A DNA stretch of 56,549 nucleotides from Ruminococcus sp. (GTDB taxonomy: Bacteria > Bacillota > Clostridia > Oscillospirales > Acutalibacteraceae). The stretch spans positions 1 to 56,549 of the forward strand of contig JAFUOM010000050.1 in the NCBI GenBank assembly GCA_017481885.1, written 5' to 3'. The notes under the pieces were generated by a model. The model had not been told where the DNA came from, searched no databases, and saw only the letters and a program-made list of their open reading frames with translations. Below are positions 4,924 to 56,549 of this stretch, piece after piece. The position numbers were made by a program, and so were the translations under genes. How positions within the stretch are numbered: position 1 is the first letter of the stretch; each line of letters opens with the position of its first letter.

Positions 4924-5535
4924 TTACATGAATTTACCAGAAGCGTTAGCAATGCTCCACACTGAACCTGCATTGTCTGTTTCGTTAATTGTAAGAATTG
5001 TTCTGTATGGGTTGTAATCAATCTCGCCTGTGCCTGAATTACCGAAAGAGTCTGTGTATTTAAACTCAGCTACACCACATGGAATACCATTCTCATCTAC
5101 ATTGTTAAATGATACTGATACATCAGCTGTAGCGATGTGTGAATAGTTTTCGTTTGATGAAGAGATTTTGAAATCTAATGTGTAGCCATAATGATCTGTT
5201 ATTTCAATAGAGCAGTGGTCTGGATTGCTCAGATTACGGTAGCATAAGCCAACTACTGAAGAACTATCCTGTACACTTGTCTGTTCGTTTGATGTGTTTT
5301 CTGCATTGTTTGTATCTGCTTTGTTTGTATCAACTTTTGTTTCCTGAGTCTGTGTCTGTGTTGATTTAGTCTTCTGTGCTTCTGTGCTCTTTTGTGTTGC
5401 TGTTACGCTTGTTGCAACCTGTGAAGGTGTCTGGTTTACTTTGTCTGTTGTGATTCTCTTTGCAACAGCTGCTCCGCCGATTACTGTTGAGATTGCTAAT
5501 AATACTACGAGTACGATTGTTAATGTTTTTTTCAT
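4924..5535 (-). CDS. Secreted protein with the YTDS/WSI C-terminal domain (paralogue A)
   Basis: I do not recognise a named family. The protein (203 aa from MKKTLTIVLV, with AAGGAG well placed before it) has a hydrophobic export segment at 5-25, a Thr/Gln/Asn-rich linker at about 30-92 and a C-terminal domain at 95-203. The domain carries FKYTDSFGNSGTG at 158-170 and WSIANASGKF at 193-202. The same domain is found in the three larger proteins at 39.8-43.4 kb. The export segment has no lipobox, so it is either a cleaved signal peptide or an N-terminal anchor. The promoter and the first 30 nt of the leader nearly match those of paralogue C 37 kb away, so they are probably co-regulated. An upstream in-frame start at 5577 lacks a ribosome site. 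Confidence 0.85.
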   Translation of the reverse strand: MKKTLTIVLVVLLAISTVIGGAAVAKRITTDKVNQTPSQVATSVTATQKSTEAQKTKSTQTQTQETKVDTNKADTNNAENTSNEQTSVQDSSSVVGLCYRNLSNPDHCSIEITDHYGYTLDFKISSSNENYSHIATADVSVSFNNVDENGIPCGVAEFKYTDSFGNSGTGEIDYNPYRTILTINETDNAGSVWSIANASGKFM

Positions 5536-5625
5536 GATGAATTTCTCCTTTAATAAATGTTTTGTACCCCTGAACATGTGTATATGTTCAACGCAAGTTT
5601 GTTGTGTTTTTAACTTACAATTGAG

Positions 5626-5697
5626 ATTATAAACAAAAAAACAGAAAAAAACGAAAAAGCATCATAAATATGGAATTAAAGTGCATAAAACGGAAAA
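5626..5697 (-). promoter_or_regulatory. Conserved regulated promoter of paralogue A (-10 plus upstream element)
   Basis: On the minus strand TATAAT occupies 5631-5626. The upstream element with core CCGTTTTATGCAC lies at 5697-5672, its core cytosine 60 bp from the -10 box. The CGTTT at the -35 position is a possible second half-site. The same layout occurs before four other genes and one orphan site in this window. Confidence 0.7.
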
Positions 5698-5798: not shown

Positions 5799-6626
5799 TT
5801 AAAGTGAATCAATAAGCTGAGCTACAAAAAGCTGAATCTGAGTTGCGTCCATAATGGAAATCTCGCCATCTCTGTCAGCATCAGCTGCTGAAAGCTTATC
5901 TTCTTCGATTAAAACAACTTCAGCAATGTGGAGCTGGATAGCTGTAGCGTCCATAATTGAAACCTCGCCGTCACCGTCAACATCACCGATAACATACTGT
6001 GGCTGAGAAGGTGTTTGAGTTTCTGTTGGAGCAACTTCTGTTGATGGCTGAGTTTCAGTAGGTGTAACCTCAGTCGGTGCAACTGTTTCACTTGGTAATA
6101 CTGTTGGCTGTGTTGCCTCAGTTACAGGAGCATTTGTTGGAGTTACAGGTGTGTCGCCAAGTGACTCAAACGCTCTTTCGTACTTAACTGCATAGTCATA
6201 AGCAGTTGAGTTGTCATAACCACGGATAACAGTTGACTCATAAATTGTGAATTCGCTGTCAAAAATCTCGCACTCAGCGTTCATAAATGTAACAGTAGCA
6301 AGTGGACTTTCAAAAAAAGCGTACTCGCCGACTCTGACAATAGTTGATGGAATAGTAACACCTGTCAAAGTATCAATTGCCATAAATGCAAAGTCGTCAA
6401 TAGAGGTTACCTTGTAATCATCAAGTTTTTCAGGAATAGTGATTTCAGCATCAGCACCGCTGTAACCGGAAACCACTGCGTCAGTTGAACCAACCACATA
6501 ATATGTGTAGTCACCGCTGACATAATAATTAGGGCTTGCATCAGTAGCATTTGAGCTGAACACAACAGTAGCAAAAACGCTTACGATAACAACAATGCTT
6601 AATATAATTGGTAATACTTTTTTCAT
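5799..6626 (-). CDS. Secreted LRR protein with C-terminal type I dockerin
   Basis: The 275-aa protein begins with a signal peptide (MKKVLPIILSIVVIVSVFATVVFS). A short BspA-like LRR_5 block follows at about 60-125 (KVTSIDDFAFMAIDTLTGV, then IPSTIVRVGEYAF). A Pro/Thr-rich linker spans about 160-210, and a type I dockerin about 213-272. Both calcium loops are intact: DVDGDGEVSIMDA and DADRDGEISIMDA, each leading into IQL helices. Dockerins plug into cohesin modules of scaffoldins, so this protein is probably displayed in a cellulosome- or amylosome-like complex; no cohesin is encoded in the window. AAGGTGG lies before the ATG. It has its own terminator. Confidence 0.92.
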   Translation of the reverse strand: MKKVLPIILSIVVIVSVFATVVFSSNATDASPNYYVSGDYTYYVVGSTDAVVSGYSGADAEITIPEKLDDYKVTSIDDFAFMAIDTLTGVTIPSTIVRVGEYAFFESPLATVTFMNAECEIFDSEFTIYESTVIRGYDNSTAYDYAVKYERAFESLGDTPVTPTNAPVTEATQPTVLPSETVAPTEVTPTETQPSTEVAPTETQTPSQPQYVIGDVDGDGEVSIMDATAIQLHIAEVVLIEEDKLSAADADRDGEISIMDATQIQLFVAQLIDSL

Positions 6627-6789: not shown

Positions 6790-7551
6790 TCAATAATTCA
6801 GTGATACGGCACAGGTATAAACATCCACGCCATATTCATTGTAGAAAGTAAAAATATAAAGCGGGTCAGTACCGTTTACCACAACATTGTTTTTATAAGG
6901 GTAGTACAAAAAAACAGTAGAATTATCGTTTTTTTCAACGATTTCAGCTTTGTGTTGTTCAGAAAACAAATCAGAACTTCCCACAAGCATACCACTATTA
7001 TAAACTTTGCAATAAATATCAGAACTGTCCTTTAGTTTGCTGTTGTCAATAACCGCTTTTACAGAGTAATTATATTTTTCATTTTCATTATCCTCTGTAT
7101 TTGATTGACCGCCATTTTGGGATACATTAGAGTCAACATCGCTGTCATTTTCAGTTGCAACAGGCTGTGTTTCTTTTGTTATATGATTGTTGTTTGTTTT
7201 GATTTCATCGTCTGTTACGCTATCTGTCTGGGCCATTACACTGTTTAATTCAGTTTCTTCCTTTGTTTCTTCGGTTGCAAGGGCATATACTGATGAATTT
7301 GAGCTTTCAGTTGACTTTATGTTCTGAGTTTCATTTGTGCTGTCTATTCCAACGTTACTCTCTTCAAGTGCAAACGTAAACACAGTAGCAATTAAGAAAA
7401 ACAACACGCTTGCTATCAGTGCAATTTTGGTAAATCTGAAATGTTCGCTGAAATTGATAACTTTGATGCTTTTTGCTTTTTGTATTGTTTTTTCTGCCCA
7501 TTCGTCGGGGATGTCAATATTTTGCATTTTGTCAAAATTGAACTCACTCAT
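6790..7551 (-). CDS. Probable membrane anti-sigma factor
   Basis: The 253-aa protein has a short cytoplasmic N-terminus (about 1-40), one membrane helix at about 42-65 (TKIALIASVLFFLIATVFTF) and a long extracytoplasmic part that is Ser/Thr/Asn/Glu-rich to about 165 and then a globular region ending in YNEYGVDVYTCAVSLNY. The start codon overlaps the stop of the upstream ECF sigma gene (ATGA), so the two are translationally coupled. That position and topology are typical of an anti-sigma factor that holds its sigma at the membrane until an envelope signal arrives. No zinc-binding HXXXCXXC motif is visible, so the class is unclear. The anti-sigma role is inferred from context. Confidence 0.75.
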   Translation of the reverse strand: MSEFNFDKMQNIDIPDEWAEKTIQKAKSIKVINFSEHFRFTKIALIASVLFFLIATVFTFALEESNVGIDSTNETQNIKSTESSNSSVYALATEETKEETELNSVMAQTDSVTDDEIKTNNNHITKETQPVATENDSDVDSNVSQNGGQSNTEDNENEKYNYSVKAVIDNSKLKDSSDIYCKVYNSGMLVGSSDLFSEQHKAEIVEKNDNSTVFLYYPYKNNVVVNGTDPLYIFTFYNEYGVDVYTCAVSLNY

Positions 7552-8033
7552 TCATCATCACCTCCGTATATTGCTTTTAATTTTTCTCTGCCACGGCTTA
7601 GCAGAGTTTTAACGGTGTTAGGGGATTTGCCTAAGATTTGCGCAATTTCGTTAACCTTGTAATCCTCACAATAGTGAAGATACAACACTTCGCGATATTT
7701 AAGTTCCAGTCTAATCAATGCCCATGACATATCGCTTCTTTCCTGCTCAAAATCTGTAAAATCGTTATTAACCTTATCAAGGGAGATAAATGGGCGATTT
7801 TTCATTATGTATCTTTTGCACTCATTAATTGCAACACGAATTAACCACGCCTTAAGATGTTCTCTGGTTTCAAAATCAGGGGATTTTTTATGGAGTCTTA
7901 AAAAGGTGTTTTGAAAGCAGTCTTCAGCATCATAAGAATTGTTAAGTCGCATTACGCACACTGAGCCAACAGTTTTTTTGTATTCACGGACGACCTGCTC
8001 AAAGCTCAGTCCCGCAAAAAGAACATCTCCCAT
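7548..8033 (-). CDS. ECF-type RNA polymerase sigma factor
   Basis: This 161-aa protein has the two domains of extracytoplasmic-function sigma factors. Region 2 is at about 15-80 (YDAEDCFQNTFLRLHKK, then HLKAWLIRVAINECKR). Region 4 is at about 100-155 (LELKYREVLYLHYCEDYKV, then the helix-turn-helix IAQILGKSPNTVKTLLSRGREKLK). AAGGGGGA stands 6-8 bp before the ATG. It overlaps the anti-sigma gene by 4 bp. A TGAAACC motif at 8085-8079 (minus strand), about 50 bp upstream of the start, resembles the -35 of ECF-dependent promoters and may allow autoregulation; I could not identify a convincing -10. Confidence 0.95.
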   Translation of the reverse strand: MGDVLFAGLSFEQVVREYKKTVGSVCVMRLNNSYDAEDCFQNTFLRLHKKSPDFETREHLKAWLIRVAINECKRYIMKNRPFISLDKVNNDFTDFEQERSDMSWALIRLELKYREVLYLHYCEDYKVNEIAQILGKSPNTVKTLLSRGREKLKAIYGGDDE

Positions 8034-36968: not shown

Positions 36969-37844
36969 TTAATTACTTTTGTTAGCAAGGTGAAGCTGAA
37001 TTAATGTTGCGTCTAGGATTGAAATAACATTGTTGCAATCTACGTCAGCTCTGTACTGCGCCATTATGTCAAAGTCGTTTAATCTTGAAAGGTAAAGCTG
37101 TATTTCAGTTACATCAGAAATAGCAGCATAAGAATTTCTGACACAGCCTTTTGCAAAATCCTTTATTGTGCCGCCGTTGATACCGCCACCGCCACCGGAG
37201 ATATAGCGACCGTCTTCGCGAAGTTTATAATGGAAATTGGTGTAGTATCTTGGACGTACATCAATATTTGTTGAAGTGTAAAACTCAACAAAGCCTCTTT
37301 TGTCTGGAACAACGAAGTTGATTGCACCGCCACTTAAGATAACCAGACAAGACTCATAACAATTTACGCCGACATATTCAGGGTCACCAAAGTGATAAGT
37401 AAATCTATCTGTGGTGTGTGAGCCGTCCTCGTTAAAATAACTTGAACGTGATAGTTTTACTCTGACTTTTCTGTAAACACCGCCTGAGTTGTCAAACTTG
37501 AATGAGTGACCGCCACCTGCTCCGTTAGGAAGGCATGTATAAAAATCATATACAACATTAGGTGTGCTTTTTACAATCTTTTCGGCATCAATACATTCTG
37601 TGCCTGCAAATTCAATTACCTCAGGACCATCAACGTCCTCCAGTGAAATACTGCCTACATAGTTTTCTGAGACGTTGTAAGAACTGAATAAAATCTCGTT
37701 GTTTTTCAGTGAGATTGTTTTATCCAGAACCATAGCATCGTTTGTTTCGTTTACAAATGCCGCACCAAAGCTGATAGTGCTTGAAAAAATAACAACAATC
37801 GCAAGGATGACACTAAAGCTTGCTTTAACGAATCTGTTTTTCAT
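36969..37844 (-). CDS. Secreted protein with C-terminal dockerin
   Basis: The 291-aa protein has a signal peptide (MKNRFVKASFSVILAIVVIF) and a central domain of about 200 residues that I do not recognise, containing FYTCLPNGAGGGHSFKFDN and a glycine stretch SGGGGGINGG. The C-terminal dockerin spans about 235-288. Its first loop is degenerate (SDVTEIQLYLSRL, the calcium residues being lost), while the second is intact (ADVDCNNVISILDATLIQL). It is probably attached to a cohesin-bearing scaffoldin. The ATG at 37844 follows GAGGGTATT. Confidence 0.85.
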   Translation of the reverse strand: MKNRFVKASFSVILAIVVIFSSTISFGAAFVNETNDAMVLDKTISLKNNEILFSSYNVSENYVGSISLEDVDGPEVIEFAGTECIDAEKIVKSTPNVVYDFYTCLPNGAGGGHSFKFDNSGGVYRKVRVKLSRSSYFNEDGSHTTDRFTYHFGDPEYVGVNCYESCLVILSGGAINFVVPDKRGFVEFYTSTNIDVRPRYYTNFHYKLREDGRYISGGGGGINGGTIKDFAKGCVRNSYAAISDVTEIQLYLSRLNDFDIMAQYRADVDCNNVISILDATLIQLHLANKSN

Positions 37845-38198
37845 AATACCCTCTCTATAATAAATCAATAGCGTTTCTATATTTTATCACTTTATATTTA
37901 TGAATAAAATATTAACGGTTTAAATTCTCCGATTTTGCCAAAGCAGTCTGGTTTTTATCTTGAAAACTTATGTATTGTACAAAACTTGTATTGAAAATTT
38001 AGCAATATTTACTCAAAACAGGGTTGTTTTTTATCCTGATGACATCAATGAAAAACAGGCAATTTTTGCGACAGAATTTGACAAATCGGGTAGATACTGC
38101 TATATTAATAATTGAAGAATTCAGACAAGAATTTTCAGTATAATTATTAAATGCTGTTTTATTCAGCTGAAAAAACACACTTACGGAGGATACGAATT
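37845..38198. other. Intergenic region with promoter of the zinc-ribbon protein
   Basis: TTGACA at 38078-38083 and TATATT at 38101-38106 (17-bp spacer) form a good promoter for the rightward gene. The rest shows only AT-rich sequence. Confidence 0.6.
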
Positions 38199-38921: not shown

Positions 38922-39146
38922 TTATTTATCGTTGGCGAATGCTAGTGTCCACTCGCCACCTGAGTAGTAATCGTTGTTATTAATTGTTTCTTTAAGATTA
39001 ATATCTGTTGATGCGTAATTGTCATCTATATGATTGAGTGAATAATAAGAGTCGTGTCCTGTTGTATGTGAAATTGTTGCGGATACACCGATTACGCTTG
39101 ACAGCATAATGATTGAAACCAGCATAATAGTAATTGTTGCTCTCAT
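38922..39146 (-). CDS. Miniature exported paralogue (F)
   Basis: The 74-aa product has an export segment (MRATITIMLVSIIMLSSVIG) and a short polar mature part that ends SGGEWTLAFANDK. That ending resembles the tail of the YTDS/WSI domain (WSIANASGKF in paralogue A), while the body of the domain is absent. GGGAGTG precedes the ATG. The promoter is the conserved type, with TATAAT and the CCGTTTTATGC element 60 bp apart. It is either a shortened paralogue with a new role or an internal deletion product. Function unknown. Confidence 0.65.
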   Translation of the reverse strand: MRATITIMLVSIIMLSSVIGVSATISHTTGHDSYYSLNHIDDNYASTDINLKETINNNDYYSGGEWTLAFANDK

Positions 39147-39220
39147 TGTTATTCACTCCCTGATTTGATACGTTTTGCTACGAACATTTAAGTTTTTGTG
39201 TTTCGTAACTTACAAGTATT

Positions 39221-39292
39221 ATTATAGTGAAAAAATCCGTCAAAAACCGTTAATTGACATAAAGTAGGAATAAACGTGCATAAAACGGAAAA
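39221..39292 (-). promoter_or_regulatory. Conserved regulated promoter of the miniature paralogue
   Basis: TATAAT at 39226-39221; element with CCGTTTTATGCACG at 39292-39267, its core cytosine 60 bp from the -10. CGGTTT occupies the -35 position. Confidence 0.7.
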
Positions 39293-39460
39293 GTTCGGAT
39301 TTATGAAGTTACACATAACAAAACGAGCCTTAAACTTAGTGTTTTAGATGCTTTTGAGTTATAAACACTACACGTTAATTACGCAAATTTAAGCAAAAAT
39401 ACTGCAAAAAAAGGGGCTGTCTCACTAATTAAAGTAGCAAGACAGCCCGTTGTTTTTCAG

Positions 39461-39720
39461 TAAATTATAGTATAGTGAACCAATGAAACGTAAATGGATA
39501 GCAAATACAGGCTCCCTTGTGTAAAGGGAGCTGTCAGCGTTAGCTGACTGAGGGATTGTCCGTGCGTAGCACCAACAGAATATAAATTATTGGTACTGCG
39601 TACGGCAATTGTAACAATCCCTCCGACCAAAATCACAGATTTTGCCCACCTCCCTTTACACAAGGGAGGCTTTTATGTTGCGTTTCATTTAGTTTATTTA
39701 TACTGGTAAACTATAATTTA
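39461..39720. mobile_element. MITE-like element 1
   Basis: Its ends share the terminal inverted repeat TAAATTATAGTTTAGTGAAC with element 2 (left end TAAATTATAGTATAGTGAAC; right end a less exact copy). An inner inverted repeat is GGCTCCCTTGTGTAAAGGGA with CTCCCTTTACACAAGGGAGG. It codes for nothing. Confidence 0.6.
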
Positions 39721-39724
39721 ACAC

Positions 39725-39760
39725 AAAAGGGGCATCTCTCATTAGAGATAGCCCCTTTTA
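39725..39760 (-). terminator. Terminator of paralogue B
   Basis: AAAAGGGGC and GCCCCTTTT enclose an ATCTCTC/TAGAGAT inner stem. Confidence 0.8.
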
Positions 39761-39774
39761 ATATTCGATCCATA

Positions 39775-40713
39775 TTAGTAGTAAACACCCGTTGCATTGC
39801 TGATGCTCCAGCTCGCTCCGGTGTTGAACACTTCCTGTATAACCAAAATGATAGCATCTTCGTGAACGTTAATAACACCATAACCTTTGTTGCCATAGGA
39901 GTCAGTGTATTCAAACTTGCACTCACCGGCAACAATGCTACCGTTCTTGTGAACATTATTCAATGTAATAGGAACATCGGCTGTGGCAACCTGTGAAGCC
40001 TGATCCTTTATGCAGACGATGTTAAGAGTAAAGGAGTTGTCGTCCTGATTTGTAATTGTGACGATGTTTTGGTCCGGTTGGTTTGAGTGATGCCATGCTC
40101 GTGTGATATCAGGAAGGATAGGCAAGCCTGCTTCAGTGGTTTCCTTTTCAACGTGCACATCTTCATCATGAGAATGTGACGAAAGGTTGCTGTTAGGGTC
40201 ACACATTAATGAGAATGACCAGTCGTGCAGCACATGGTCGCCGTTATCAGTAACCAGTAAAACTTTTGCCTGACGGTTAGCAGGTGTGAGAATGGTGTCA
40301 AGCTCGGTTTCGTACTGAATGCTTAAAGTTGAGTTTGATATCGGACCCTCACATTTAATTTGTTCGCCGTCAAGCTCAAAGTAATATCCGTTGTACTTGT
40401 AGGTTTTGACCTCGCCCGATTCTTTGTGTTTAACAGTCATCTCCATACCTGTGCCGTCCAAATCAATACACTGCTGGAAATGAAGAGTATCATCACCATC
40501 AACCTTAATCGATGTTTTTGTTTCAACATCACTTAGGTAGTATATCTTTTTTTTAGGCTCAACAAAATCTATTATTTCGTAGTCGTCGCTCGGCTTAATG
40601 GTAATATTGTCAGAGTTAAAAGCTGTTGAATTTTGAATAAAAAAAGCAGTCGCACTAAACAGAACTGCTACCGCTAAAAATGATAGTATCAGATACAGTA
40701 CAGTTTTTTTCAT
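39775..40713 (-). CDS. Exported two-domain paralogue B
   Basis: The 312-aa protein has an export segment at about 4-25, an N-terminal domain at about 40-170 (DYEIIDFVEPKKKIYYLSDV, then QQCIDLDGTGMEMTVKHKES), a short His-rich linker (SHSHDEDVHVEKE) and the C-terminal YTDS/WSI domain at about 200-312 with FEYTDSYGNKGYG and WSISNATGVYY. The N-terminal domain is shared only with paralogue D. It has no catalytic motif I recognise. GAGGGAAACT precedes the ATG. It lies in the array below the LytTR operon, with its own promoter and terminator. Confidence 0.85.
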   Translation of the reverse strand: MKKTVLYLILSFLAVAVLFSATAFFIQNSTAFNSDNITIKPSDDYEIIDFVEPKKKIYYLSDVETKTSIKVDGDDTLHFQQCIDLDGTGMEMTVKHKESGEVKTYKYNGYYFELDGEQIKCEGPISNSTLSIQYETELDTILTPANRQAKVLLVTDNGDHVLHDWSFSLMCDPNSNLSSHSHDEDVHVEKETTEAGLPILPDITRAWHHSNQPDQNIVTITNQDDNSFTLNIVCIKDQASQVATADVPITLNNVHKNGSIVAGECKFEYTDSYGNKGYGVINVHEDAIILVIQEVFNTGASWSISNATGVYY

Positions 40714-40797
40714 TAGTTTCCCTCAATATATAACGCAATTAAACTGTAACACAAAATCGCAATATTCATTGATTTAGGTTACACTTCCCTCGGTGAG

Positions 40798-40890
40798 ATT
40801 ATACACGAAAAGTCAAAATAATTGCTCAAAAACGGCACGAATCGGGAATAAACGTGCACGAAACGGAAAAAAGCGGCATAAAACGGAAAA
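40798..40890 (-). promoter_or_regulatory. Conserved regulated promoter of paralogue B
   Basis: TATAAT at 40803-40798; element with CCGTTTCGTGCACG at 40870-40845, core cytosine 61 bp away. A second half-site CCGTTTTATGC lies 20 bp further up (40890-40878). Confidence 0.7.
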
Positions 40891-40910
40891 TTAAACCCAA
40901 AAAGCGGTTG

Positions 40911-40951
40911 ATAAAATAAAAACACCGTTGCATTATTAGCAACGGTGCTTT
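40911..40951 (-). terminator. Terminator of paralogue C
   Basis: CACCGTTGC pairs with GCAACGGTG; read leftwards a T-rich run follows. The surrounding 40714-41025 gap contains only this and the promoter of B. Confidence 0.8.
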
Positions 40952-41025
40952 TATGGATTTTGGATAGATATAGAATAATATATATTTTAGTTTGTTTATT
41001 TGTTTAGTAATTGTTATTGTGTGAA

Positions 41026-41916
41026 TCAGTTCTTGCTGATTAACTTAGATGATACAACCGGTACTTCTTTTGTATCTGTTAATGACATTGGCTCTGATGG
41101 TTCAATAACCTTGTCGTTTACCTTAGTGTAGTCGCCTGTTGCCTGGCTAATGCTCCAGTTTGTTTTATCTGTAGACTCACTCTTGATTGAAAGGTTGATT
41201 GAATCTTCCCTAACTGTGATTGTGCCTACACCCTTGTTGCCAAAAGAATCTGTGTACTTGAAGTCTGCTGTGCCGTAAATGCCCTTGCTGTCCTTGTGTG
41301 TATCAAGTGTAACAGAAACCTTTGCTGTAGCAATCTTAGTTGCTTTTGCGTTGCATGATTCGATGATGATGTCTAATTTGTTGCCTTCCTGTTTGATAAC
41401 CTGAACTGTGCAACCCTCGTTCTTTGTGTGCTTCCATACGCCTGTTACGTTTGGCATAACGTCTGTTTCTGGTGCAGTTGTTTCAGTTGTTTCAGTTGGT
41501 TCTGTTGTTGGGATTGTTGTAGGAATAGTTGTTGGAATTGTTTCCGGTTTAATTGTTGGCTTTACAGTTGGTTTTGTTGTAGGTTTAACAACTGGCTTTG
41601 TAGTTGGTTTAACTGTAGGCTTTGTTGTAGGCTTTACAGTTGGCTTAACAACAGGCTTCTTAACAGTTGGCTTTGTTTTGTTAGTTGTTGGCTTTACAGT
41701 AGGCTTAACTGTTGGTTTAACTGTTGGCTTTACAGTAGCCTTTTCTGTTGGAGCTGTTGTTGATTTTGTTTCTACTGATGTTGAAGACTCTGTTGAAACT
41801 ACAGTAGTTGCTTCTTCTGAGTGGTTCTTTGCACTTTTTGAGATAGCAGCTGTTACGCCAACTACGCTTGAAATCGCAAGTACTGCGATGAGGATGATTG
41901 ATAATGTTTTTTTCAT
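41026..41916 (-). CDS. Exported paralogue C with KPT repeats
   Basis: The 296-aa protein has an export segment (MKKTLSIILIAVLAISSVVG), a Ser/Thr-rich stretch, a long repeat of KPT/VKPT units at about 62-125, an IPTT/ETT-rich stretch and then the YTDS/WSI domain at about 155-262 with FKYTDSFGNKGVG and WSISQATGDY. A polar tail of 30 residues follows. The repeat resembles wall-spanning stalks of Gram-positive surface proteins, but there is no LPXTG motif. AAGGAG precedes the ATG. Its leader is nearly identical to that of paralogue A. Confidence 0.87.
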   Translation of the reverse strand: MKKTLSIILIAVLAISSVVGVTAAISKSAKNHSEEATTVVSTESSTSVETKSTTAPTEKATVKPTVKPTVKPTVKPTTNKTKPTVKKPVVKPTVKPTTKPTVKPTTKPVVKPTTKPTVKPTIKPETIPTTIPTTIPTTEPTETTETTAPETDVMPNVTGVWKHTKNEGCTVQVIKQEGNKLDIIIESCNAKATKIATAKVSVTLDTHKDSKGIYGTADFKYTDSFGNKGVGTITVREDSINLSIKSESTDKTNWSISQATGDYTKVNDKVIEPSEPMSLTDTKEVPVVSSKLISKN

Positions 41917-42006
41917 GATGGTTTTCTCCTTAATTAATTGAATTATTGTACCCCGAACTTGTTTTGTCCGCTAGCAAGTTTGTTGTGTTTTTAACTTACA
42001 AGTGAG

Positions 42007-42094
42007 ATTATATACGGAAAAACGCGTTAAAACGAAAATTAGTCATTAATAAGGAATAAATGAGCATAAAACGGAAAAACAGGTACAAAACGGA
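42007..42094 (-). promoter_or_regulatory. Conserved regulated promoter of paralogue C
   Basis: TATAAT at 42012-42007; CCGTTTTATGCTC element at 42078-42053, core cytosine 60 bp away. CGTTTT sits at the -35 position and a further CCGTTTTGTACC half-site lies 19 bp upstream. Confidence 0.72.
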
Positions 42095-42149
42095 ACAAAA
42101 TGGTGGTTTAAGGTGCTACAAATAGAAAAGAGTCTGCCATTGTTTTCGG

Positions 42150-42436
42150 TAAATTATAGTTTAGGTGAACAAAAAGCCTTCCCCGAGATTGGGGAAGGTG
42201 GCACCGATAGGTGACGGATGAGGTTGAAGGCGTTGATAGCTTAACAATTAAATTGCTGTTATCAAGCGTTTTTACCTCACCACCGCCTACGGCGGAGCCT
42301 TTCCTTGCAGGAACGGCAAACCCTTTGTCCTTCGGACATTTCCCTTATCAAGGGAATACCTGATTTCAAGCAGGGGAAGCCTTGATTTTCAAAAACGTTT
42401 TTTGTAGCAATTCGTGGTTCACTAAACTATAATTTA
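42150..42436. mobile_element. MITE-like element 2
   Basis: The ends are near-perfect inverted repeats: TAAATTATAGTTTAGGTGAA at the left and GTTCACTAAACTATAATTTA at the right (one extra G). The inside differs from element 1 and has its own hairpin CCTTCCCC/GGGGAAGG. It contains no gene. Confidence 0.65.
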
Positions 42437-42437
42437 A

Positions 42438-42471
42438 CAAAAAAGTGCCGTTGCAATAATTGCAACAGCAC
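42438..42471 (-). terminator. Terminator of paralogue D
   Basis: GTGCCGTTGCA pairs with TGCAACAGCAC; leftwards a run of Ts. Confidence 0.85.
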
Positions 42472-42481
42472 TAAAGTTATA

Positions 42482-43429
42482 TTATTTTTCTTCTATTATA
42501 TATTTACCGGTAGTATTGTTTACAGACCAGCCTGCACCTTTATCGTATTCCTGTTTCATAGTAAGTACAATGGAATTTTCACTGACAGATATTACGCCAA
42601 CGCCCTTATTATCCGTAGAATCTGTGTAATTGAATGCACTGGTTCCTTTCATAACACCATCGACCATATGTACATCTTTCAATGTGATTGATACTTTAGT
42701 AGATACAAAATGTGTGCCATTGTAAGAATTAGTAACTAAGAGCTTAAGGTCGTTGCCGTTCTGTTGCAAAATTTCAATGTGGCCACCGTCGTCGTTTACT
42801 TTGTGCCAGCGCTTGCTCAATTTTGGCATAACCAAAGTGTTTTCCTGTGTTGGCTTTTCGGTTTCTTGTTCAGCCTCTGTGTTATCCTGAGTTTCTGGCT
42901 CAGTAGGAGTTGTTACTTCAGGTAATGCTTCAACGGTGAAATAAAACGGAGTTGTAATATATCCGCCGTCGTCTGTAATTAGTATAACATCTGCACTGTA
43001 TTTACCCGGTGTGAGTACGCCGTTGGCGTTTGCGTTTTCCTCTATGCTAAAGTCAAACCAGAAGTAGTCCTCAAATTTAAGTAACTGGTCGTCGAGCTTA
43101 AAGTAATCGCAGTTGTAAGTATATTCCTGTATATTTCCATTAGTGTTGTTTTTCACGACCATACTCATACCTGTGCCGTCAAAGTCGATTTCCTGTGTGA
43201 GTATATATTCGCCGCTTCCGTCAGGATTTAATTTATAACTGTTGATTTCGCTCAGTGAGTAGCATGTTTTTTTAGGTGGGATAAATTCTTCTATAGTGTA
43301 GTCGTCGCTTGTATCAGACGGGCAATCCGCAACCTTTTGAGAAATCCCCTTTGATACTAATGCAGTTGCACCAAACAGAAGTGCAGCTGTAAAAATAGAA
43401 ATCAACAAGAGTAATAGTGTTTTTTTCAT
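42482..43429 (-). CDS. Exported two-domain paralogue D
   Basis: The 315-aa protein has an export segment (MKKTLLLLLISIFTAALLFG), an N-terminal domain homologous to that of B (DDYTIEEFIPPKKTCYSLSE; TQEIDFDGTGMSMVVKNN), a Glu/Thr/Pro-rich linker (about 170-200) and the YTDS/WSI domain at about 203-312 with FNYTDSTDNKGVG and WSVNNTTGKY. It is the member nearest to the sensor kinase gene. GGAGGGTTATT precedes the ATG. Function unknown. Confidence 0.85.
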   Translation of the reverse strand: MKKTLLLLLISIFTAALLFGATALVSKGISQKVADCPSDTSDDYTIEEFIPPKKTCYSLSEINSYKLNPDGSGEYILTQEIDFDGTGMSMVVKNNTNGNIQEYTYNCDYFKLDDQLLKFEDYFWFDFSIEENANANGVLTPGKYSADVILITDDGGYITTPFYFTVEALPEVTTPTEPETQDNTEAEQETEKPTQENTLVMPKLSKRWHKVNDDGGHIEILQQNGNDLKLLVTNSYNGTHFVSTKVSITLKDVHMVDGVMKGTSAFNYTDSTDNKGVGVISVSENSIVLTMKQEYDKGAGWSVNNTTGKYIIEEK

Positions 43430-43514
43430 AATAACCCTCCATTTGTTTTGTTTGCATATAATAAAATACTTGAATCTTTACTTGGAATTTCAAGCACAGG
43501 GAAGCCCCGCTTGC

Positions 43515-43586
43515 ATTATAAACCAAAAAAATGACAAAAACTGTGTACTGTCACGATTAGGGAGTGAATGTGCACAAAACGGAAAA
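43515..43586 (-). promoter_or_regulatory. Conserved regulated promoter of paralogue D
   Basis: TATAAT at 43520-43515; CCGTTTTGTGCAC element at 43586-43561, core cytosine 60 bp away; CAGTTT at the -35 position. Confidence 0.7.
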
Positions 43587-43653
43587 GTACCGTCGCATTA
43601 AAGTGACGGTACTTTTGGGTGGTTTGGTATAAAAGAATGGTATGTAATCAACA
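43583..43653 (-). ncRNA. Possible small RNA from the orphan conserved promoter
   Basis: Transcription from the orphan -10 (43665-43660) should start near 43653. It meets a perfect 12-bp stem (AAAAGTACCGTC with GACGGTACTTTT) at 43583-43616 followed by CCGTTTT. That would give an RNA of about 70 nt. No open frame with a ribosome site lies inside. It may instead be what remains of a deleted paralogue. Confidence 0.35.
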
Positions 43654-43659
43654 ATTGAG

Positions 43660-43740
43660 AGTATACACTATTAAACGTTTAAAAACCAAAGACAAGCTCA
43701 AACAAGGAACAGACGAGCATAAATCGGAAAGAGCGGAAAT
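43660..43740 (-). promoter_or_regulatory. Orphan copy of the conserved regulated promoter
   Basis: TATACT at 43665-43660; the element CCGATTTATGCTCG at 43731-43706 has its core cytosine exactly 60 bp away, and a further TTTCCGC lies just upstream. The start-site sequence CTCAATTG matches that of paralogue A. No gene follows before the promoter of D. Confidence 0.6.
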
Positions 43741-43748
43741 GAGCGTAT

Positions 43749-43781
43749 AAAAAAGTGCCGTTGCAAATGCAACAGCACTCA
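43749..43781 (-). terminator. Terminator of the kinase/regulator operon
   Basis: GTGCCGTTGCA pairs with TGCAACAGCAC; leftwards a T-run. It closely resembles the terminator of D. Confidence 0.85.
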
Positions 43782-43785
43782 TAAA

Positions 43786-45060
43786 TCAAAATACAAATAA
43801 AACGTCAAAGGTGTCATCTGTGTGAGCAATCTTCATTAAGACATCGTTTCTGTCACAGATTTCCTGCATTGAGCTGATACCGATTCCGTGGTCGCCCTCG
43901 GTCTTGCGTGTAAGGAACTTGTCATCCTTTTTGTTTACAACGCCGTCAAATGAGTTACGGATAAGCACCTGCATTCCTGCGCCCTCTCCGTTTGAAATAA
44001 CCTGAATGAACGGGTTTTCCTTTACATTCTGGCAGGCTGTAACAGCATTATCCAAAGCATTACCAAGCAGAGAGCACAAATCGATATCTGAAATATCAGG
44101 TGGATTGATTTTCTTGTACTCAAAGCTGATGTTGTTTTGCTTTGCGATGGTCGCATAGTGGTACATAATGCCGTCAACAGCAGGGTTGCCGGTGTACGGA
44201 ATACTTACTTCAGCATTGTTGTGCGACTGCAACTCGTTGCAGTATTTTTTAAGTCCGTCGTAATCCTTGTTGTTCAGATACTGGTGAATTGTTGTGATAC
44301 GGTGTTTGAAGTCGTGACGGATTCGTCTGGCGTCTTCAATACGATTAGCAAGCTCAAGGTAGTGGTTTTGCTGTAAGCTGAGGTCTTTTTCGAGTTCGAG
44401 CTTACGCTTTATGGAAAGGCTGGAGCTTGCCATTGTTCGACACACAACCACAATTACTATGTACTGCAAAAGTATGGTAGCCAGAGCGTGCTGGTTGTTG
44501 ACCAAATCGCTTATCGGCAGGGCAACGAAACACGATATAAACATAATAATGGAAATGAACCATATTCCGTTCCAGTAATCACCGTCTTGCAACGAAAGGA
44601 AAGGTCGCACTGTGTCAACAATGAGCTTGCGGAAAAACCAGTAGAATATTATCTGGATAATCACACAATATATGCTGATGAGCAACAAAAGGTCGTTGTA
44701 GGAAAGGTAATCGGTCATCTGCTTCATCAGGTATGTAACAACTGAAACCACGATGAAATCCTGAAGCATTACAAGACCGCAAACAAAAATGTGTTCCTTG
44801 ATGTATTTTTCAAGGACAAGAATGTTTGCCGTGGACGCCAGAATACCGAAAATGAAAATATCGCTTTTCATAATTCCGTCGCCCATATGTATTATTTTTG
44901 TTATCAGACAAAGACCATACCAGTTAAATGCAAGCAGGATAGCTTGAGTAATGACGATTGCAATCCATTGTTGTTTTTTTATTAACTTTTTGAAAGGCGC
45001 CAGTCTTAGGAGTATGCCCGGAACAAAACCGAGCGTGAAGATTAGTAACCTTACTTCCAT
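43786..45060 (-). CDS. AgrC/ComD-type sensor histidine kinase
   Basis: The 424-aa protein has an N-terminal membrane domain of about six helices (1-210). A coiled linker follows, then the H box ARRIRHDFKHRI with the probable phospho-His at 249. The GHKL ATPase has the N box SLLGNALDNAV at about 330-340 and the G box GDHGIGISSM at about 389-398. This is the HPK10 class that senses peptides or other envelope signals and signals to LytTR regulators. It starts 5 bp after the regulator stop. No agrB/agrD-like genes are nearby, so the signal is unknown. Confidence 0.92.
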   Translation of the reverse strand: MEVRLLIFTLGFVPGILLRLAPFKKLIKKQQWIAIVITQAILLAFNWYGLCLITKIIHMGDGIMKSDIFIFGILASTANILVLEKYIKEHIFVCGLVMLQDFIVVSVVTYLMKQMTDYLSYNDLLLLISIYCVIIQIIFYWFFRKLIVDTVRPFLSLQDGDYWNGIWFISIIMFISCFVALPISDLVNNQHALATILLQYIVIVVVCRTMASSSLSIKRKLELEKDLSLQQNHYLELANRIEDARRIRHDFKHRITTIHQYLNNKDYDGLKKYCNELQSHNNAEVSIPYTGNPAVDGIMYHYATIAKQNNISFEYKKINPPDISDIDLCSLLGNALDNAVTACQNVKENPFIQVISNGEGAGMQVLIRNSFDGVVNKKDDKFLTRKTEGDHGIGISSMQEICDRNDVLMKIAHTDDTFDVLFVF

Positions 45061-45065
45061 AGTGG

Positions 45066-45806
45066 TTAGCTTCCTATATTCTCAATAAGTCTTTTGTATT
45101 TAATGTCGGCAAATTCGTTTCTGATGGCAACTCGCTTGTCCTTTGGAATATCAAACTCGGTGCCGTCAGTGAGTAACATTGTTTTGTTTGGTGTGCCTAC
45201 AACCTCACTTATTGAAACCAGAGCGTAGCGCACAGGTTTCATAAATCCGTAAGGTTCAAGTTCCTTGTGGAATTCAGCGAGTGATGAGCGGGTAGTATAT
45301 TCACCGTCGTTTGTGTGGATAACGGACTTGTGTCCCTGCGACTCAATCCAGATGATATCATCAAGTGCAATTGTTTCGTCAATTCGGTCACACTTAACGG
45401 TAATTGTCTTTTTTGCCGCGAAGTTCTTGAAAAAGAAGTCGAGTACAGCAAAAAACTTTTCCTCTTCAATCGGCTTGAGCAAATATCTCATAGCTTCAAC
45501 GTCGTAGGACTCTACGCCGAAATCAGAAGATGTTGTGCAGAAAACAATTTTTGTACGCTTGTTTCCGCTGTAGAGCTGTTTTGCAGTTTCCATACCGTTG
45601 ATGCCTGTCATATATATGTCCATAAACACAAGGTCATATTTATTGATATCAGCGGCAAGGAAATCTTCGCCTGATACAAAGCGGTCAATGTTTTCTATGT
45701 AATCGGTTTTAGAAAAACCTTTTGTTATAAGCTCAATAATCCTGTTGCGTTCGTAATCGTCGTCGTCACAAACCGCAATATTTACTGTAAAATTCTTGTC
45801 GAGCAT
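45066..45806 (-). CDS. LytTR-family response regulator
   Basis: The 246-aa protein has a receiver domain (acidic DDDD at 14-17, phospho-acceptor D63 in LVFMDIYM, K111 in YLLKPI) and a C-terminal LytTR DNA-binding domain at about 135-238 (ITVKCDRIDETIALDDIIWI then GFMKPVRYALVSI). LytTR proteins bind direct repeats with a GTT core. It is the first gene of the operon, with the kinase downstream. The array of paralogues with conserved promoters lies directly beyond, so it is the obvious candidate regulator; this link is inferred. Confidence 0.94.
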   Translation of the reverse strand: MLDKNFTVNIAVCDDDDYERNRIIELITKGFSKTDYIENIDRFVSGEDFLAADINKYDLVFMDIYMTGINGMETAKQLYSGNKRTKIVFCTTSSDFGVESYDVEAMRYLLKPIEEEKFFAVLDFFFKNFAAKKTITVKCDRIDETIALDDIIWIESQGHKSVIHTNDGEYTTRSSLAEFHKELEPYGFMKPVRYALVSISEVVGTPNKTMLLTDGTEFDIPKDKRVAIRNEFADIKYKRLIENIGS

Positions 45807-46599: not shown

Positions 46600-46760
46600 G
46601 GTGAAATATCCTTCGGATGTGAAATAATGACCTGTGGTCATTGTGAAATATTGCTCCTTTGTTGCAATGTGAAATGAAATTTGCCCACATTCGCTTTAGC
46701 GAATATTTCATATTTACGAAGTAAATATTTCACAGCGAAGCTATTTCACTTGTCCGTTAG
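46600..46760. repeat. Array of short hairpins spaced by GTGAAAT
   Basis: At least five small inverted repeats (such as ATCCTTCGGAT, ATGACCTGTGGTCAT, ATTGCTCCTTTGTTGCAAT, ATTCGCTTTAGCGAAT and ATTTACGAAGTAAAT) are separated by GTGAAAT on the left half and ATTTCAC on the right half. The whole is a mirrored, palindrome-like block. It codes for nothing. Confidence 0.65.
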
Positions 46761-46773
46761 GGCAAATTTCGTT

Positions 46774-46818
46774 GAAAAGAAAACACCATTTGTCTACTTG
46801 ACAAATGGTGTTTCTTTT
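46774..46818 (-). terminator. Terminator of the tRNA operon
   Basis: AAACACCATTTGTC pairs with GACAAATGGTGTTT, immediately beyond tRNA-Leu, with T-rich sequence leftwards. Confidence 0.85.
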
Positions 46819-46819
46819 C

Positions 46820-46907
46820 TGGTGCCGGTGACCGGACTTGAACCGGTACGATTGCAATAATCGAGGGATTTTAAGTCCCTTGTGTCTGCCTATTCCACCA
46901 CACCGGC
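46820..46907 (-). tRNA. tRNA-Leu (TAA)
   Basis: The minus strand starts GCCGGTG and ends CACCGGCACCA, with CCA encoded. The anticodon loop CTTAAAA gives TAA. A long variable arm is present, as in leucine tRNAs, and the T loop is GGTTCAAGTCC. Confidence 0.96.
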
Positions 46908-46946
46908 GGTTAAAATAAGCAACCCCTGCTGTTGCAGGGGTCGTAG

Positions 46947-47021
46947 TGGTGACCCGGACGGGAATCGAACCCGTGTTACCGCCGTGAAAGGGCGGTGTCT
47001 TGACCGCTTGACCACCGGGCC
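46947..47021 (-). tRNA. tRNA-Glu (TTC)
   Basis: The minus strand starts GGCCCGG and ends CCGGGTCACCA with encoded CCA. The anticodon loop CTTTCAC gives TTC. T loop GGTTCGATTCC. Confidence 0.96.
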
Positions 47022-47023
47022 AT

Positions 47024-47100
47024 TGGTAGCGGAAATAGGACTTGAACCTACGACACTTCGGGTATGAACCGAATGCTCTAGCCAACTGAGCTATTCCGCC
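47024..47100 (-). tRNA. tRNA-Met (CAT)
   Basis: The minus strand starts GGCGGAA and ends TTCCGCTACCA with encoded CCA. The anticodon loop TTCATAC gives CAT. It lacks the C1-A72 mismatch of initiators, so it is probably the elongator; a tRNA-Ile with lysidine is a less likely alternative. Confidence 0.93.
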
Positions 47101-56488: not shown

Positions 56489-56549
56489 ATTTTTAGAGAG
56501 TTTGATCCTGGCTCAGGACGAACGCTGGCGGCGTGCTTAACACATGCAA
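56489..56549 (+). rRNA. 16S ribosomal RNA, 5' end only
   Basis: AGAGTTTGATCCTGGCTCAG (56497-56516) is the universal 27F site near the 5' end of 16S. It continues GACGAACGCTGGCGGCGTGC as in Clostridia. The gene runs out of the window; the 5' end is estimated. Confidence 0.97.

What the first reader, a model, noticed from the sequence alone, without database searches (positions are those of the whole stretch)
38922..45806. LytTR two-component operon next to an array of paralogous exported proteins: a candidate new regulon
Seen: an AgrC-type kinase and a LytTR regulator lie directly upstream of four exported paralogues, each with its own promoter and terminator; a fifth is 37 kb away with the same promoter. 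Known: LytTR regulators act on promoters with upstream direct repeats and often control exported or surface proteins. Inferred: the operon controls all five genes. No agrB/agrD or ABC exporter of a peptide is nearby, so the signal would be new.
Basis: partly seen in the sequence, partly recalled or inferred. Interest (0 to 1): 0.85.

Follow-up and report, generated by a model that had tools for sequence, protein, structure and literature searches.

The report
LytTR two-component secretome regulon, Ruminococcus
A sensor-regulator gene pair in a gut Ruminococcus most likely switches on a scattered set of genes for exported proteins through one shared promoter design, much like known clostridial regulators but with its own DNA code and an unknown signal.

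Summary
A REC-LytTR regulator (45066-45806) and a polytopic GHKL kinase (43786-45060) precede four exported-protein genes; a fifth lies near 5 kb. All five share an operator-promoter: half-sites TTCCGTTTTRTGCAC and TTCCYTRTTTRTGTC about 21 bp apart, no consensus -35, TATAAT at a fixed distance. The predicted geometry (G at -72, second half-site at about -50) matches that published for C. difficile RgaR. A model of the promoter, run over 161 genomes of the genus, reaches 22.6 bits only in four genomes (17, 6, 4 and 1 times); the best of the other 157 is 19.4. Three of those four, and no others, carry this kinase. The fourth (83% complete) has one operator and no pair found. Targets include avidin-like barrel proteins, BspA-type LRR proteins and cysteine peptidases; three sites precede only short terminated transcripts. 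Not shown: DNA binding, phosphotransfer, signal. Against: the regulator lacks residues that most related LytTR domains keep, and the genome has three other LytTR genes. Best reading: a new lineage-restricted secretome regulon of the VirSR/RgaSR kind.

The parts
45066..45806 (-). response regulator, REC + LytTR domains; presumed activator
   Evidence: Pfam over cut-off; 83% identical orthologue only in G056 among 161 genus genomes
43786..45060 (-). AgrC/VirS-like histidine kinase, seven hydrophobic N-terminal stretches, GHKL domain
   Evidence: orthologues (68-70%) only in G056 and G011 of 161
42482..43429 (-). exported protein with C-terminal barrel domain (target)
41026..41916 (-). exported protein, PT-rich linker and C-terminal barrel domain (target)
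39775..40713 (-). exported protein with C-terminal barrel domain (target)
38922..39146 (-). 74-aa protein with signal-peptide-like start and no barrel domain; perhaps a truncated paralogue (target)
4924..5577 (-). fifth paralogue (likely start 5535), exported, C-terminal barrel domain (target)
39256..39290 (-). operator (half-sites A and B) for 38922-39146; -10 at 39221-39226
40834..40868 (-). operator for 39775-40713, with a further A-like half-site just upstream; -10 at 40798-40803
42042..42076 (-). operator for 41026-41916, with a further A-like half-site just upstream; -10 at 42007-42012
43550..43584 (-). operator for 42482-43429; -10 at 43515-43520
43695..43729 (-). second operator just downstream of the kinase gene; -10 at 43660-43665
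43583..43653 (-). predicted ~70-nt non-coding transcript ending in a strong hairpin; RNA candidate or remnant
   Evidence: fold -26.0 kcal/mol for the 120-nt stretch that starts with it
5661..5695 (-). operator for the fifth paralogue; -10 at 5626-5631

Best explanation
The kinase senses an unidentified extracellular cue and phosphorylates the LytTR regulator. The active regulator binds two direct half-sites about two helical turns apart, at roughly -70 and -50, and recruits RNA polymerase to promoters with a good -10 and no consensus -35. This switches on a scattered set of genes: barrel-domain exported proteins beside the pair and elsewhere, BspA-LRR, cysteine peptidase and other exported proteins, and possibly three short RNAs. 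Shown: the promoter design, its fixed geometry, its distribution over the genus, its co-distribution with this pair, and signal-peptide-like starts in nearly every target tested. Inferred: that this regulator is the binder, that it activates, the transcription start sites, and the role (changing the set of surface and secreted proteins).
For: (1) Sites were picked by a 19-nt core alone, yet a TATAAT-like hexamer lies exactly 45 nt further on in 18 of 24 kept sites by strict pattern and 46 nt in 2 more. (2) Repeat autocorrelation peaks at 21 bp (0.55; column shuffles reach it in 2.8%), with lesser peaks at 20 and 10 bp (0.46 each). LytTR sites are commonly two repeats of 9-11 nt with 11-13 nt between (PMC4847170, passages). 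(3) If the -10 hexamer starts at -12, the invariant G of half-site A is at -72 and a G/A column of B at -50; RgaR of C. difficile depends on a G at -72 and at -51 (PMC10602386, passages). (4) Promoter model over 161 genomes: 22.6 bits or more 17 times in G000, 6 in G056, 4 in G011, 1 in G025; best in the other 157 genomes 19.4. Five of these 28 matches were not in the training set. (5) Kinase orthologue in G000, G056 and G011 only (ten further genomes have matches of 25-30% identity); in all three it lies directly beside operator-bearing genes for exported proteins. (6) Of ten close genomes (AspS 93% or more), the six with neither pair nor operator show no model match over 18.4 bits. (7) 18 of 19 target ORFs tested pass a crude signal-peptide test against 9 of 42 other window ORFs. 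(8) Unrelated genes share the operator, so gene duplication alone does not explain it.
Against: G025 has one strong operator (68.2 bits) and no pair found. The regulator reads GFMKPVRYALVS where, of 32 aligned rows, 17 have a histidine and 30 the later asparagine; the only row lacking both is its own orthologue. The genome has three more LytTR genes; the C61 pair also occurs in G056 and the C99 LytTR-only gene in G011. No operator was found upstream of the regulator gene itself. Three of the four genomes are one clade, so the co-occurrence is few independent events. One barrel gene in G011 (L052:473-1477) has no detected operator of its own. One target (C48) is a phosphomutase-like gene, not exported. 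The column-shuffle test of the repeat is only moderate (2.8%).
Confidence: 0.8

Rival explanations
1. The promoters form one real regulon, but another LytTR protein of the genome (C61, C47 or the receiver-less C99) or an unrelated activator binds them; the pair beside the array is only a neighbour.
For: The window regulator lacks residues that most related LytTR domains keep, whereas C47 and C61 have H.S..VN. The C61 pair occurs in G000 and G056 (67-68%) and the C99 LytTR in G000 and G011 (72%).
Against: C47 orthologues (72% and 66%) occur in G041 and G016, which have no model match over 16.9 bits. G011 has four operators but no match to the regulator query at E 1e-3, so C61 is not in its assembly (83% complete). 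The window kinase is in all three genomes with several operators, next to operator-bearing genes. C99 was not sought in G056.
Confidence: 0.13
2. The shared upstream sequence is mainly a by-product of recent gene duplication and not a regulated promoter set.
For: The leader CTTGTAAGTTA and the promoter are most alike among the barrel-gene paralogues.
Against: Genes of other families (LRR, C1 and C39 peptidases, CBM26, GLUG, DUF218) carry the same operator at the same distance from the -10, and stretches of the spacer are near random while the half-sites are not.
Confidence: 0.04
3. The element is an alternative sigma (ECF) promoter; an ECF-like gene lies beside the fifth paralogue (7548-8033).
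For: An ECF-like gene is next to the fifth paralogue in G000 and in G025.
Against: The promoters have a TATAAT-type -10, which fits the housekeeping sigma factor, and the conserved half-sites lie far upstream at about -76 to -42. That ECF promoters lack a TATAAT is from general knowledge.
Confidence: 0.03

Closest known systems
VirS-VirR of Clostridium perfringens
   Same: Polytopic kinase + LytTR-type regulator; two imperfect direct repeats just upstream of -35 at a fixed position and on one face of the helix; scattered direct targets that include secreted proteins, a cysteine protease and small RNAs (PMC2838878, PMC2688746, PMC4877802; passages).
   Different: Other operator sequence; regulator without the FxRxHrS motif (its importance for VirR seen only as a title in a reference list); no known toxin family among the ten targets scanned with Pfam; no AgrB found; more predicted direct targets than the five known in C. 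perfringens strain 13.
RgaS-RgaR of Clostridioides difficile
   Same: AgrC-like kinase and VirR-like regulator; direct repeats with critical G at -72 and -51, almost the positions predicted here; a small RNA and small hypothetical genes as targets; not driven by the Agr peptide (PMC10602386, abstract and passages).
   Different: There the kinase and regulator genes are orphans, not a pair; targets serve sporulation and include agrB1D1; the operators were called VirR-like, unlike these.
AgrC-AgrA quorum sensing
   Same: Kinase type and LytTR regulator.
   Different: No AgrB found in this genome and no AgrD recognised nearby; kinase far below the AgrC equivalog cut-off.

Membership tests
LytTR response regulators (PF04397) | REC and LytTR domains over the curated cut-off | tested here: met
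LytTR operators | two repeats of 9-11 nt with 11-13 nt between (pitch 20-24) | tested here: met
   autocorrelation peak at 21 bp; definition from PMC4847170 passages
LytTR operators | bound by the regulator | not testable with these tools
   needs a binding assay
VirR orthologues | FxRxHrS motif in the DNA-binding domain | tested here: not met
   GFMKPVRYALVS in its place; so not filed as a VirR orthologue
VirR/RgaR-type regulons | two boxes at a fixed place just upstream of the -35 | tested here: met
   compare
VirR/RgaR-type regulons | small RNAs among direct targets | tested here: inconclusive
   three short terminated transcripts predicted; none matches Rfam at gathering score
Agr quorum sensing | AgrB/AgrD with the kinase-regulator pair | tested here: inconclusive
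   no AgrB at E 0.001 in G000, but the genome is 88% complete and no control genome rang over the cut-off; AgrD not sought by a model
AgrC (NF046015) | score over the equivalog cut-off | tested here: not met
   54.7 vs 500 bits
avidin-like beta-barrels (exported domain) | avidin-like antiparallel barrel fold | tested here: inconclusive

The most novel reading that the evidence does not exclude
A LytTR pair with a rewritten recognition surface and operator code, uncoupled from any Agr peptide, runs a rapidly changing secretome regulon in which the secreted barrel proteins (or the 74- and 85-aa exported peptides) are themselves the ligand-carrying or signalling part that the kinase reads, and in which three short RNAs extend the control.
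Probability: 0.08. Interest if true: 0.75.

Novelty: new member of a known kind. Interest (0 to 1): 0.5.

Why it matters
Six searches of the held library (titles and starts of abstracts of the listed papers seen, listing 6 of 7 and 10 of 17) showed no paper on a LytTR regulon in Ruminococcus. The finding gives a predicted regulon with a base-resolution operator, a target list and a named regulator, so it is directly testable. It would show how a LytTR protein without the usual recognition residues reads DNA, and it ties uncharacterised surface and secreted proteins of herbivore gut bacteria to one switch.

Tried and rejected
Whole-genome script scan: not possible. The first degenerate pattern was mis-specified (it excluded C at one position) and was replaced. 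With up to 1 mismatch that pattern is noisy: reversed controls gave 5 (G000), 4 (G056), 1 (G011) and 2 (G025) hits. Of its 39 listed places (20 exact), I dropped L105 and L106 (inside one coding gene, in G056 and G025) and L107 (no promoter), and did not examine G000 C101 and C107, G056 C102:41066 and C119, G025 C29, C31, C42 and C46, or G011 C65 and C209:22127. The order-level hit in G080 was not examined. The upstream tandem site on C85 (L099:2830) has no -10 of its own and was kept in the count of 24 but left out of the model. A 15.1-bit match in G056 (C29) and a 19.5-bit match in G000 cut by a contig end (C84) are not counted among the 28.

Rejected or weakened: ECF promoter; copying by duplication alone; an Agr locus beside the pair. 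The 315-aa full-length fold was poor (mean pLDDT 52.2), so nothing is claimed for the N-terminal region. The barrel-domain profile found no solved structure by sequence at E 1. Rfam found nothing at the three short transcripts at gathering score. The sigma-70 consensus scan gave 21 promoter-like sites against 20.8 in shuffles, so it says nothing either way.

Full report
OBSERVATION. The operator occurs four times in the window at up to three mismatches against none in 100 shuffles. With a looser 19-nt core there are six in the window, two of them upstream of 42482-43429. Three array genes and the fifth share a ~110-residue C-terminal domain; a profile of it, run over ORFs of 18 sources held, did not find the 74-aa gene.

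PROMOTER. I collected sites by the 19-nt core only and laid them out without gaps (26 rows, 24 kept, two decoys set aside). Half-site A reads TTCCGTTTTRTGCAC, half-site B TTCCYTRTTTRTGTC. The -35 place reads CGGTTTTT, and a TATAAT-like hexamer follows at a fixed distance in 18 of 24 by strict pattern and one base further in 2 more. The core did not include the -10, so this is independent support. Spacer columns are near random in places (0.03-0.5 bits) while half-site columns reach 1-2 bits. Two window promoters (cores at 40850 and 42058) have a further A-like half-site upstream. Leaders of 31-92 nt end in a purine-rich, ribosome-site-like stretch in the 18 genes listed (judged by eye). Taking the -10 to start at -12, the invariant G of half-site A falls at -72 and a G/A column of B at -50; two further invariant G columns fall at -65 and -44, 21 bp apart. 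In C. difficile the critical G residues for RgaR are at -72 and -51 (PMC10602386, passages), and VirR boxes also lie just upstream of -35 at a fixed place (PMC2838878, passages). The start site here is predicted, not mapped.

DISTRIBUTION. A sequence-only model of 23 promoters was run over 161 genomes of the genus (stricter filters, which may lose weak matches). Scores of 22.6 bits or more occur only in G000 (17), G056 (6), G011 (4) and G025 (1). The best score in the other 157 genomes is 19.4. Of the 28, five were outside the training set: two C1-peptidase genes (G000 C66:2643, G011 C209), a CBM26 gene (G011 C190), a C39-like peptidase (G000 C77, 22.6 bits, the weakest) and the second site on C85. 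The kinase has orthologues (68-70%) only in G056 and G011; ten other genomes have matches of 25-30%. The regulator orthologue is only in G056 (83%); in G011 the contig ends inside the kinase gene, so the place of the regulator is missing.

INDEPENDENCE. AspS identity sets off ten close genomes at 93% or more, the next listed being 86%; five of 161 genomes had no AspS match at the threshold and a few partial matches were not listed. In an AspS tree G000, G025 and G056 form a supported group (99/99), while G011 falls in an unresolved bush with six genomes that have neither pair nor operator. So the co-occurrence is not simply one supported clade, but it rests on few events. Within 1.8 kb downstream of aspS the barrel gene is found in G000 and G025 only; G041 and G111 have a relative of the 5799-6626 gene there without it (the G056 and G180 flanks were cut by contig or locus ends).

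WHICH REGULATOR. The genome has four LytTR genes. C47 has close relatives in G041 and G016, which have no operator. C61 is in G056, but G011 has no match to the regulator query at E 1e-3. C99 (no receiver domain) is in G011, was not sought in G056, and remains possible. The window kinase is in all three genomes with several operators and beside operator-bearing genes in each. Its regulator's LytTR domain is odd: it reads GFMKPVRYALVS where 17 of 32 aligned rows have a histidine and 30 the later asparagine; only its orthologue lacks both. That may go with the unusual operator, or may mean that it binds poorly. This is the main doubt.

SHORT TRANSCRIPTS. Operators at window 43711, G000 C66:5783 and G000 C9:13574 precede only about 70-150 nt before a strong hairpin. 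VirR and RgaR both control small RNAs (PMC4877802, passages; PMC10602386, abstract), so these may be RNAs; they may equally be remnants of lost genes. The C9 stretch holds a possible 19-codon ORF.

VERDICT. A real regulon (about 0.93, my judgement), most likely run by this pair (0.8). It works like VirSR and RgaSR but is not filed as a VirR orthologue, because the FxRxHrS motif is absent. New member of a known kind.

Noticed in passing
39490-39690 and 42150-42420: Two hairpin-rich insertion-like stretches between a gene end and the next promoter, with similar A/T-rich ends; they look like small non-coding mobile repeats.
   Followed up: no
6790-8033: An ECF-sigma-like gene and a neighbouring membrane-protein gene near the fifth paralogue; G025 has two such pairs there (L053:511-3295). 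Named by eye.
   Followed up: partly
5799-6626 and 36969-37868: Exported proteins ending in dockerin-like repeats (by eye), as in several other loci of these genomes.
   Followed up: no
L055:2127-2381: 85-aa exported peptide with two cysteines, operator-driven, followed by a radical-SAM-like gene (start near L055:2676, by eye).
   Followed up: no
46700-47100 and 56490-56549: Gut-1 RNA next to three tRNA genes, and the start of a 16S rRNA at the contig end.
   Followed up: no
L101:2048-4059: Full operator-promoter upstream of a phosphomutase-like gene with a leader of over 200 nt, the one tested target without a signal-peptide-like start.
   Followed up: partly
L189:24-464 and L141:3048-3603: In G011 the receiver-less LytTR gene (72% to C99) lies on the same contig (C190) as an operator-bearing CBM26 gene.
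   Followed up: no
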